From: Aggregicoccus sp. 17bor-14
GTDB lineage: Bacteria > Myxococcota > Myxococcia > Myxococcales > Myxococcaceae
Length of the DNA stretch: 64,000 nt
Direction of reading: 5' to 3'
Assembly: GCF_009659535.1 (NCBI RefSeq)
Contig: NZ_VJZZ01000013.1
Span: 1 to 64,000 of the forward strand
Shown: positions 16,723 to 57,575 of the stretch, in pieces
How the letters are laid out: each line of letters begins with the position of its first letter
Position numbering within the stretch: the stretch's first letter is position 1
Made by a program: the position numbers and the translations under genes
The notes under the pieces: model-generated
What the model saw: only the letters and a program-made list of their open reading frames with translations
Database searches by the model: none
Told to the model about the DNA's origin: nothing

Positions 16723-16877
16723 CGCCGCACTCTGCTAACGCAGGCCCGCACTGCCCACATGGGGAAAGAGGCGGCGCCCGGTTGCTACCGCACAGGCGGG
16801 AGGAGGGCGCTCGCTCGGCCTCCTGCCGCGCTCCCCGGGGCGCTCGTGAACCGGGCGGGGATGCCAAGCGCGCGGCA

Positions 16878-17252
16878 GGCTCGATGGCAAGCCGGGACGG
16901 GACGGGCTCCTGTCGCTTCTGCCGAGCGCGCCCGGGCGTTGCCCTGCGCATCGCTCCGGGGAGGCGCGAGTGAGGAGAGGGGTGTCGGGCCGAGTGCTGT
17001 GCGGAGCTAAAGACAAACCTCGGGAGTTTTCGAAAGTCCCGAGGTTTGTCGTTAGCAGCGCACCGACCTGCGCCCGCTGAACCCGCACGCGCGTGCTTTT
17101 TCGGCGACCGGAGCGCAGACCTCGAGACGTCGCGCGGCTCCTGTCGGAACTGGGTCCACACCCGAGCCTCCCTGGAGCGCCGCGCAGGCGGACGCCCCCT
17201 CGCGCTGGGCGGAGGCGACGGACACCGGCCCATCCCTCGTCCTCCCGGAGCG
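16878..17252. mobile_element. Composite inverted-repeat element A (no cargo)
   Basis: The element is about 375 bp. Its left arm (about 16878-16962) and right arm (about 17168-17252) are imperfect inverted copies of each other, about 83 bp each. Inside lie a near-perfect palindrome of about 50 bp (17007-17056, arms GCTAAAGACAAACCTCGGGA-type), a conserved GCACCGACCTGCGCCCG block, and a perfect GCACGCGCGTGC palindrome at 17085-17096. It shares arms and internal blocks with 35271-36316 and 57211-57575. No transposase is inside. Most of the 679-bp gene-free gap between cysE and the STAS-like gene is this element. Confidence 0.75.
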
Positions 17253-17401
17253 ATGCGCAGACCTCGTCCCTGCGCGCCCCGAGCGGGTCAGCTCTGCCCC
17301 GGTTTCCGGGCCGCCTGGCAGCGCGCGGTGCGCCGCGTTATGACTGCACGCCAGACACAGCACCGTCCCCGTGCCCCACCCCGCCGGAAGGGAGAGCCGC
17401 C

Positions 17402-35270: not shown

Positions 35271-36316
35271 GCTCCTGGGGAAGACGGACGGGACGGGCTC
35301 CCGTCGCATGCGCCCAGCACCCCGGGGCGCTGCCCTGCGCGGCGCTCCGGGGATGCGACAGAGAGGGGGTGTCGGGCCGAGTGCTGTGCGACGCTAAATA
35401 CAAACCTCGGGAGTTTTCAAAACCCCCGAGGTTTGTCGTTAGCTCCGCACCGACCTGCGACCGGGAGGGTGCCCCCCTTCCCCTCCGCCGGCCGTGGACG
35501 AAGTGTTCCGTCCAGCGCTCACGGGACCGACTGTCCCGTCGTCACGTCGAAGCGGTGGACGCGCTCTCGATGCCACGGCAGTCCATCGAGAGTCACGACG
35601 GTGTACCGCCCCTCTGCGTCGATGCCCTCGCAGCGCCCCCAGCACCAGTGGGAGACGGTGGGCAGGAGCAGCCAGAAGTGCTCGACCAGCTCGTCGAGCC
35701 GAACGGCGCGAATCAGCCTTCCGCGCTCGAAGAACCGGAGCATCGTTTCTGCACGGTCGTAGTCGCGCGGCAGCAGGTCCTGGCCATCGAAGCCGACGAC
35801 CAGGTGGTCCCCGTCGTCCGAGAGCGATGCCTCGCGGAACCAGCCCGGCATCTCCCAGGAGAAGCGCTCCGACCCATCGGATGCCACGCGCACCACGGTG
35901 GTGCGCCAGGCCTTCGGATCCGTCCGCGCGCAGAAGCGGCCGCTGCGTGAGCAGACCCGCCGTGCACTGGGTGGTGGCAGAGGCTCGTCGGCACGCGAGG
36001 ATCCGGTGGCAAGGAGGGCTCCGATGAGGGCGAGGCCCAGGAAGCGAGCGGCAGGAAGGCCCGGCGAGAGGTGCATGAGGTGCAGAACGCAGGAGGGCGC
36101 GCGGAGGTCTACGCCTCATCTCCCGGGACCTGCGGGCGGGCGGCACTTCCACGGACGAGAATGGCGGTTCTACTCGGCCGCTCCTGCCTCCGCCGAACCC
36201 GCACGCGCGTGCACTTCGACGAAGCCCTGAGCCTCCCCGGAACGCCGCGCAGGCCGGCGCCCCCTCGCGCTCGGCGCAAGCGAAAGGAGGCCGTCCCACC
36301 CGTCTTCCTCCGAGCC
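35271..36316. mobile_element. Composite inverted-repeat element B with cargo gene
   Basis: The element is about 1,046 bp. The left arm (about 35271-35355) and right arm (about 36232-36316) are imperfect inverted copies (about 83 bp). Next to the left arm are the conserved GTGTCGGGCCGAGTGCTGTG block, a palindrome of about 50 bp at 35393-35443 and GCACCGACCTGCG; next to the right arm is a perfect GCACGCGCGTGC palindrome (36201-36212). The middle holds a minus-strand gene (35519-36076). The cargo-free relatives A and C are about 370 bp long. It accounts for the long gaps on either side of the cargo gene. Confidence 0.75.
35519..36076 (-). CDS. Exported protein inside inverted-repeat element B
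   Basis: The protein has 185 residues with a signal peptide (LGLALIGALLATGSSRADE). The mature part repeats a short strand pattern with WHRERVHRFDVTTGQSV, LVVGFDGQDLLPRDYD and WCWGRCEGIDAEGRYTVV, which looks like partial beta-propeller blades. I do not recognise the family. Third positions carry more A/T than the neighbouring genes by eye. It lies between the two inverted arms of a repeat element that elsewhere in the window has no gene. Confidence 0.55.
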   Translation of the reverse strand: MHLSPGLPAARFLGLALIGALLATGSSRADEPLPPPSARRVCSRSGRFCARTDPKAWRTTVVRVASDGSERFSWEMPGWFREASLSDDGDHLVVGFDGQDLLPRDYDRAETMLRFFERGRLIRAVRLDELVEHFWLLLPTVSHWCWGRCEGIDAEGRYTVVTLDGLPWHRERVHRFDVTTGQSVP

Positions 36317-57070: not shown

Positions 57071-57210
57071 TCGGCTCTCCCCCCAACAGTCTGAGTTGCG
57101 CCGAGCCTAGTTCAGAAGCGCGCACTTGCCGCGTTCCTGGCGCAGCGGTCTCCTCTCGCCTTTCACGGAGGCAGAGGGACGGGTCCGTCGCACTGTGAAC
57201 CGCGCGCATC

Positions 57211-57575
57211 GGCTCTATGGGAAGCCGGGACGGGACGGGCTCCCGTCGCATGCGCCGAGCGCGGGCGGGCGCTGCCCTGCGAGGCGCTCCGGGGAAGCTC
57301 GGGAGATTTCAAAACCCCCGAGGTTTGTAGACAGCACCGCACCGACCTGCGCCCGGGAGGGGTACCCCCGGGGCGCGAAGTCGCGCGCACCTGTTCTGAG
57401 ATGTCGGGGGTATTGCGGTAGTCCTTACAGGCCCCGCGGCCTCGCCTCCTGGGGGGCCGCACCAGGATGGAAGCGGGCCCGCTCCCGAGCCTCCCTGGAG
57501 CGCTGCGCAGGCCGACGCCCGCGCGCGCTGGACATCCACGAGGCGAGCCCGTCCCGCCCGTCCTCATCCCGAGCC
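57211..57575. mobile_element. Composite inverted-repeat element C (no cargo)
   Basis: The element is about 365 bp. The left arm (about 57211-57294) and right arm (about 57491-57575) are imperfect inverted copies. Compared with A and B it has lost about 60 bp after the left arm, removing one side of the internal palindrome, but AAAACCCCCGAGGTTTGT and GCACCGACCTGCGCCCG remain. It lies in the gene-free region 57071-57599. Confidence 0.7.

What the first reader, a model, noticed from the sequence alone, without database searches (positions are those of the whole stretch)
16878..17252. Composite element with ~83-bp terminal inverted repeats, three copies in 40 kb
Hand alignment shows that left arms at about 16878, 35271 and 57211 share a common block (core GACGGGACGGGCTCC, TGCCCTGCG, GCTCCGGGGA), and that right arms at about 17168, 36232 and 57491 are the same block inverted (core GCGCAGG, GTCC). 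All three keep the same internal order: arm, palindrome (GCTAAA-ACAAACCTCGGGA and its mirror), GCACCGACCTGCG. This is structured like a non-autonomous mobile element, and no transposase is inside. I do not recognise it as a described family.
Basis: seen in the sequence. Interest (0 to 1): 0.75.

Follow-up and report, generated by a model that had tools for sequence, protein, structure and literature searches.

The report
Hairpin-packed repeat family, one genome only
The window holds three copies of a repeat that is scattered about 35 times between genes of this one bacterium: long mirrored ends enclosing an ordered set of hairpins, most likely a worn-out mobile element that needed a helper enzyme and whose hairpin is now a landing site for another jumping gene.

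Summary
A sequence model of the arm finds 61 arms (E<1e-4) in the window's own 6.9-Mb genome and none that stand up in 97 relatives. They form about 35 elements, 23 of them assembled as inverted pairs (250-1018 bp). The interior is modular with a fixed order: left arm, hairpin H, motif c, motif D, palindromes E and G, inverted D, hairpin F, right arm; copies are subsets of this. Flanks of different copies are unrelated, so the element itself was the unit of dispersal. Left and right arms are distinct lineages, and an element's own arms match each other no better than arms of other copies, so arm pairing is not under detectable selection. No target duplication, empty site, transposase or autonomous copy was found. 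Copies are old (median identity 79%), intergenic, often between convergent genes, and absent from 38% of the genome. A separate insertion sequence, probably IS4 family, sits in 4 of 4 cases inside an element, in palindrome E, with a 9-bp duplication. Best reading: a lineage-specific, non-autonomous composite repeat comparable in design to pneumococcal BOX elements; transposition is inferred, not shown. A variant of a known kind.

The parts
16866..16965 (+). Copy 1, left arm (modelled core 16886-16965, outer part from about 16866)
   Evidence: Arm model E 9.7e-18; outer part from the alignment of 57 arms
16999..17063 (+). Copy 1, hairpin H (inner stem 17006-17056)
   Evidence: Sequence; alignment of 18 copies and pair counts
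17060..17072 (+). Copy 1, motif c GCACCGACCTGCG
17077..17110 (+). Copy 1, hairpin F (CCCGCACGCGCGTGC at 17082)
17166..17270 (-). Copy 1, right arm (modelled core 17166-17242)
   Evidence: Arm model E 6.4e-11
35275..35357 (+). Copy 2, left arm
   Evidence: Arm model E 1.2e-17
35393..35443 (+). Copy 2, hairpin H
35447..35459 (+). Copy 2, motif c
35495..35514 (+). Copy 2, palindrome E (TGGACGAAGTGTTCCGTCCA), the type of site that the IS uses elsewhere
35519..36076 (-). Open frame of 185 aa inside copy 2, passenger or trapped gene
   Evidence: ORF list, codon-position score, no family and no clear homologue
36198..36212 (+). Copy 2, hairpin F core
36231..36312 (-). Copy 2, right arm
   Evidence: Arm model E 5e-16
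57193..57217 (+). Copy 3, outer left extension shared with nine other copies
   Evidence: Alignment of outer flanks
57218..57298 (+). Copy 3, left arm
   Evidence: Arm model E 6.2e-19
57301..57336 (+). Copy 3, hairpin H, left half missing
57339..57351 (+). Copy 3, motif c
57391..57432 (+). Copy 3, motif D with its small hairpin
57489..57570 (-). Copy 3, right arm
   Evidence: Arm model E 2.8e-16

Best explanation
A lineage-specific, non-autonomous, composite interspersed repeat. The full form is about 690 bp: left arm - H - c - D - E/G palindromes - inverted D - second c - F - right arm. It spread as one unit, most likely by transposition in trans by an unidentified transposase that recognised the two roughly 100-bp ends. 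Copies then lost or gained hairpin modules; the compact ~340-bp form of window copy 1 equals either a deletion between the two c repeats or the form before the central block entered. The family looks old and persists between genes. Its E palindrome has become a site-specific landing pad for a probable IS4-family insertion sequence. Shown: multicopy, ordered modules, unit of dispersal, distinct left and right arms, IS in E. Inferred: transposition, helper transposase, ancestral form.
For: 61 arms in one genome, none convincing in 97 relatives. Fixed module order in 23 complete copies. Flanks unrelated: one weak hit among 46 flanks against 247 of 253 element pairs. Left and right arms are separate lineages (scores 37.1 and 37.2 within, 32.9 between). 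No transposase inside assembled copies; intergenic, 16 of 29 between convergent genes. IS ends in E with matching 9-bp words.
Against: No target duplication at the outer ends; no empty site; no autonomous copy and no transposase with similar ends identified; arms are far longer than usual transposon ends; confinement to part of the genome; palindromes E and G also occur alone.
Confidence: 0.62

Rival explanations
1. Clusters of several independent small palindromic repeat families (REP/BIME-like) that pile up at the same intergenic spots by nested insertion, with no single ancestral unit.
For: E and G palindromes also occur alone (C6:242079, C28:8476, C24:83678, C14:395); at least four elements end in another shared sequence instead of the right arm; the central block is flanked by an imperfect 18-bp direct repeat, as a nested insertion could leave.
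Against: H, c, D and F keep one order and orientation relative to the arms in every copy that has them, and D lies almost only in arm-bearing elements.
Confidence: 0.18
2. A structured DNA or RNA element kept by selection, for example a bidirectional terminator or 3'-end structure between convergent genes, not a mobile element.
For: Strong folding (z -7.4; median -7.3, interiors -3.3); 16 of 29 between convergent genes; H stem keeps pairing with 15 two-sided changes, 7.9 in shuffles.
Against: An element's own arms are not better matched than arms of other copies (P 0.86; duplex energy P 0.92); no U-tract after H; no Rfam match; absent from all relatives and from a third of the genome; the pair counts do not correct for relatedness.
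Confidence: 0.12
3. Sites that mark or organise one chromosomal domain, bound by an unknown protein.
For: No arm at E<1e-3 on C1, C4, C8-C10 and C12, 38% of the genome (P about 1.5e-8, chosen after seeing the data; dispersion over contigs P 0.002). The 16-mer of D is exact at 20 of 24 places.
Against: Contig order is unknown; no binding protein known; far longer and more variable than known site systems; regions of low constraint would give the same pattern.
Confidence: 0.04

Closest known systems
BOX elements of Streptococcus pneumoniae and S. suis (PMC3049150)
   Same: Composite: two distinct end modules around a variable set of inner hairpin modules; intergenic; strong folding; presumed non-autonomous.
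   Different: No sequence relation found; arms about 100 bp, several different inner hairpins in fixed order instead of a tandem array of one; GC-rich host.
MITEs, as reviewed in PMC10969869
   Same: Inverted ends, short, multicopy, intergenic, no transposase gene.
   Different: GC-rich, not AT-rich; no target duplication; no partner transposon with the same ends found.
REP/BIME palindromes (PMC2817692, PMC3733652)
   Same: Extragenic palindromes, often between convergent genes, IS targets.
   Different: About 35 copies of a long ordered unit, not high-copy units of 20-40 bp; link to a tyrosine transposase not tested.
ISRm22, an IS4-family element in Sinorhizobium meliloti REPs (PMC1525189), for the nested IS
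   Same: All known copies sit in a repeated palindrome at or near its axis.
   Different: 9-bp instead of 6-bp duplication; target is palindrome E inside a larger element; the IS interior is not in the assembly.

Membership tests
MITE | Terminal inverted repeats | tested here: met
   Inverted arms in 23 assembled pairs
MITE | Short, multicopy, no transposase gene | tested here: met
   250-1018 bp, about 35 copies; no transposase in assembled complete copies
MITE | Target-site duplication | tested here: inconclusive
   None found at any boundary, but exact ends are unknown and copies are old
MITE | AT-rich | tested here: not met
   Elements are strongly GC-rich like their host contigs (0.735-0.743)
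MITE | Partner transposon with matching ends in the same genome | tested here: inconclusive
   No arm pair encloses a transposase other than the IS in E, whose ends differ; other transposases of the genome were not surveyed
BOX element | Sequence homology to boxA/boxB/boxC | not tested
   The BOX models of PMC3049150 were not at hand; only the design was compared
REP/BIME | Associated REP tyrosine transposase (Y1) in the genome | not tested
Structured RNA family (Rfam) | Match to a curated covariance model | tested here: not met
   No match in the window or in six element loci
IS4 family (for the nested IS) | IS4-type DDE transposase | tested here: inconclusive
   Only 34 aa of the tail are assembled (IS4_3 profile E 0.059); its relative in G002, 55% identical there, is IS4 (E 1.9e-83)
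IS4 family (for the nested IS) | Inverted ends and direct target duplication | tested here: met
   Similar ends CTCAAGAT..CACAT; 9-bp words GGAACRYTT whose A-side and B-side sets match one to one

The most novel reading that the evidence does not exclude
A new class of mobile unit with ~100-bp asymmetric arms plus a second, inner pair of inverted D motifs, whose ordered hairpins are the substrate of an unknown mobilisation enzyme (perhaps acting on single strands), and which is confined to one chromosomal domain.
Probability: 0.08. Interest if true: 0.75.

Novelty: new variant of a known kind. Interest (0 to 1): 0.42.

Why it matters
It adds a well-defined, ordered composite repeat family in a very GC-rich genome, outside the AT-rich rule for such elements, and ties a probable IS4-family insertion sequence to one module of it in 4 of 4 cases. 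It also explains eight contig ends of this draft genome. A second genome of the genus would turn the mobility question into a simple empty-site comparison.

Tried and rejected
Target duplications by exact search over 115 x 115 boundary positions and by permutation: none. Empty sites through gene order in 24 family genomes (five loci): neighbours not syntenic. Weak arm hits in relatives: those read lie in other sequence, mostly coding, with no second arm. Arm-arm co-evolution: absent. One clade for the compact form: 99/98 support at first, gone after trimming sequence beyond the junction, so withdrawn. The IS as the autonomous parent: rejected, because it has its own ends and its own duplication inside E. 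The 185-aa frame: no family, no clear homologue.

Full report
What is there. The window lies in contig C13 of a 6.92-Mb draft genome with 38 contigs. The three places reported carry inverted arms. A sequence model built from 24 arms finds 61 arms at E<1e-4 in the genome, including all six in the window. In the fetched loci 23 elements are complete inverted pairs of 250-1018 bp; others are split by contig ends or have a different right end, giving about 35 elements. None of 97 relatives has a convincing match (the two strongest hits, read, show no second arm).

Anatomy. Oriented by hairpin H, the copies show subsets of one order: left arm, H, c (GCACCGACCTGCG), D (CTGTTCTGAGATGTCGGGGG plus a small hairpin), palindromes E (TGGACGGAACAYTTCGTCCA) and G (CTGGAATGAAGCTTCATTCCAG), inverted D, F (CCGAACCCGCACGCGCGTGC), right arm. 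Three copies (C13:73191, C5:352191, C2:240503) have both D motifs as a second, inner inverted pair. There the central block is flanked by an 18-bp imperfect direct repeat (CGCACCGACCTGCGCCCG / CGCACGGACCTGCCCCCG), which is single in the compact ~340-bp form of window copy 1 and five other copies (read). Ten copies carry a longer left end with another hairpin. At least four elements end instead in a shared sequence GGGAGGCGTGGCGTGCCGGCAGCGCGTGGCGCCGTGC.

Unit of dispersal. Flanks 130-900 bp outside the arms are unrelated between copies (one weak hit among 46 flanks), while 247 of 253 element pairs match, with median identity 79%. Left arms and right arms form separate lineages (mean scores 37.1 and 37.2 within, 32.9 between). 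This fits a unit that spread with both ends. No duplication of target DNA was found, and gene neighbours are not conserved in other genera, so no empty site could be read. Transposition therefore remains an inference.

Structure. The elements fold strongly (z -7.4 for the window copy; median -7.3), largely because of the inverted arms; the interiors alone have median z -3.3. H keeps its stem with 15 two-sided changes (7.9 in shuffles, 0 of 500 as high), a modest sign of constraint that does not correct for relatedness. The arms show no such sign: own arms are not better matched than foreign arms (P 0.86; duplex energy P 0.92). A long closing RNA stem under selection is thus not supported.

Nested IS. 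Eight contig ends lie inside elements and carry one of two sequences, four each, that are the two ends of one insertion sequence. Each end is preceded by half of palindrome E. The 9-bp words on the two sides match as sets: GGAACATTT (C25 and C7), GGAACGTTT (C19 start and C18) and twice GGAACACTT (C19 end and C14 with C24 and C2). All four copies seen are thus in E. The assembled tail of its protein is weakly IS4-like, and its closest relative in the family is a clear IS4 transposase. This mirrors ISRm22 in S. meliloti REPs (PMC1525189).

Setting. 16 of 29 elements lie between convergent genes, 5 between divergent ones, none inside a gene (simple ORF caller). No arm better than E 0.0016 lies on C1, C4, C8-C10 and C12.

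Verdict. A real, lineage-specific, modular, hairpin-rich interspersed repeat, comparable in design to BOX elements (PMC3049150) and probably a decayed non-autonomous mobile element. It is GC-rich where MITEs are described as AT-rich and shows no target duplication, so it is described as working like one rather than filed as one.

Noticed in passing
Contig ends C25:1, C19:1 and its end, C14 end, C24:1, C18:1, C7:1, C2:1 (loci L057, L164, L058, L048, L088, L046, L163, L053): A probable IS4-family insertion sequence, four copies, always in palindrome E of an element; its interior is missing from the assembly. The 9-bp words suggest which contigs adjoin (C25-C7, C19-C18).
   Followed up: partly
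Whole genome; C1:1-400000 (L113-L132) against C13: Elements are absent from C1, C4, C8-C10 and C12 (38% of the genome) but six lie in the 182 kb of C13; the bearing contigs read are also slightly richer in GC (0.735-0.743 against 0.723).
   Followed up: partly
C6:242079-242098, C14:27-44 and 395, C28:8476, C24:83678-83749: Lone perfect or near-perfect copies of palindromes E and G without arms, so these palindromes may be separate small repeats.
   Followed up: partly
window 35519-36076: An open frame of 185 aa with a signal-peptide-like start lies between the arms of copy 2; no family and no clear homologue in 24 family genomes.
   Followed up: partly
C13:146840, C14:124540, C17:24930, C16:130310: An alternative right end (GGGAGGCGTGGCGTGCCGGCAGCGCGTGGCGCCGTGC) is shared by four elements that lack the usual right arm.
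   Followed up: partly
Outside the left arm of ten copies, e.g. C2:240503 and C13:73868: A further hairpin, CCCTCTCCC..GGGAGGGTCGGGGTGAGGG, precedes the left arm; it resembles a repeat common in GC-rich bacteria (from memory, not tested).
   Followed up: no
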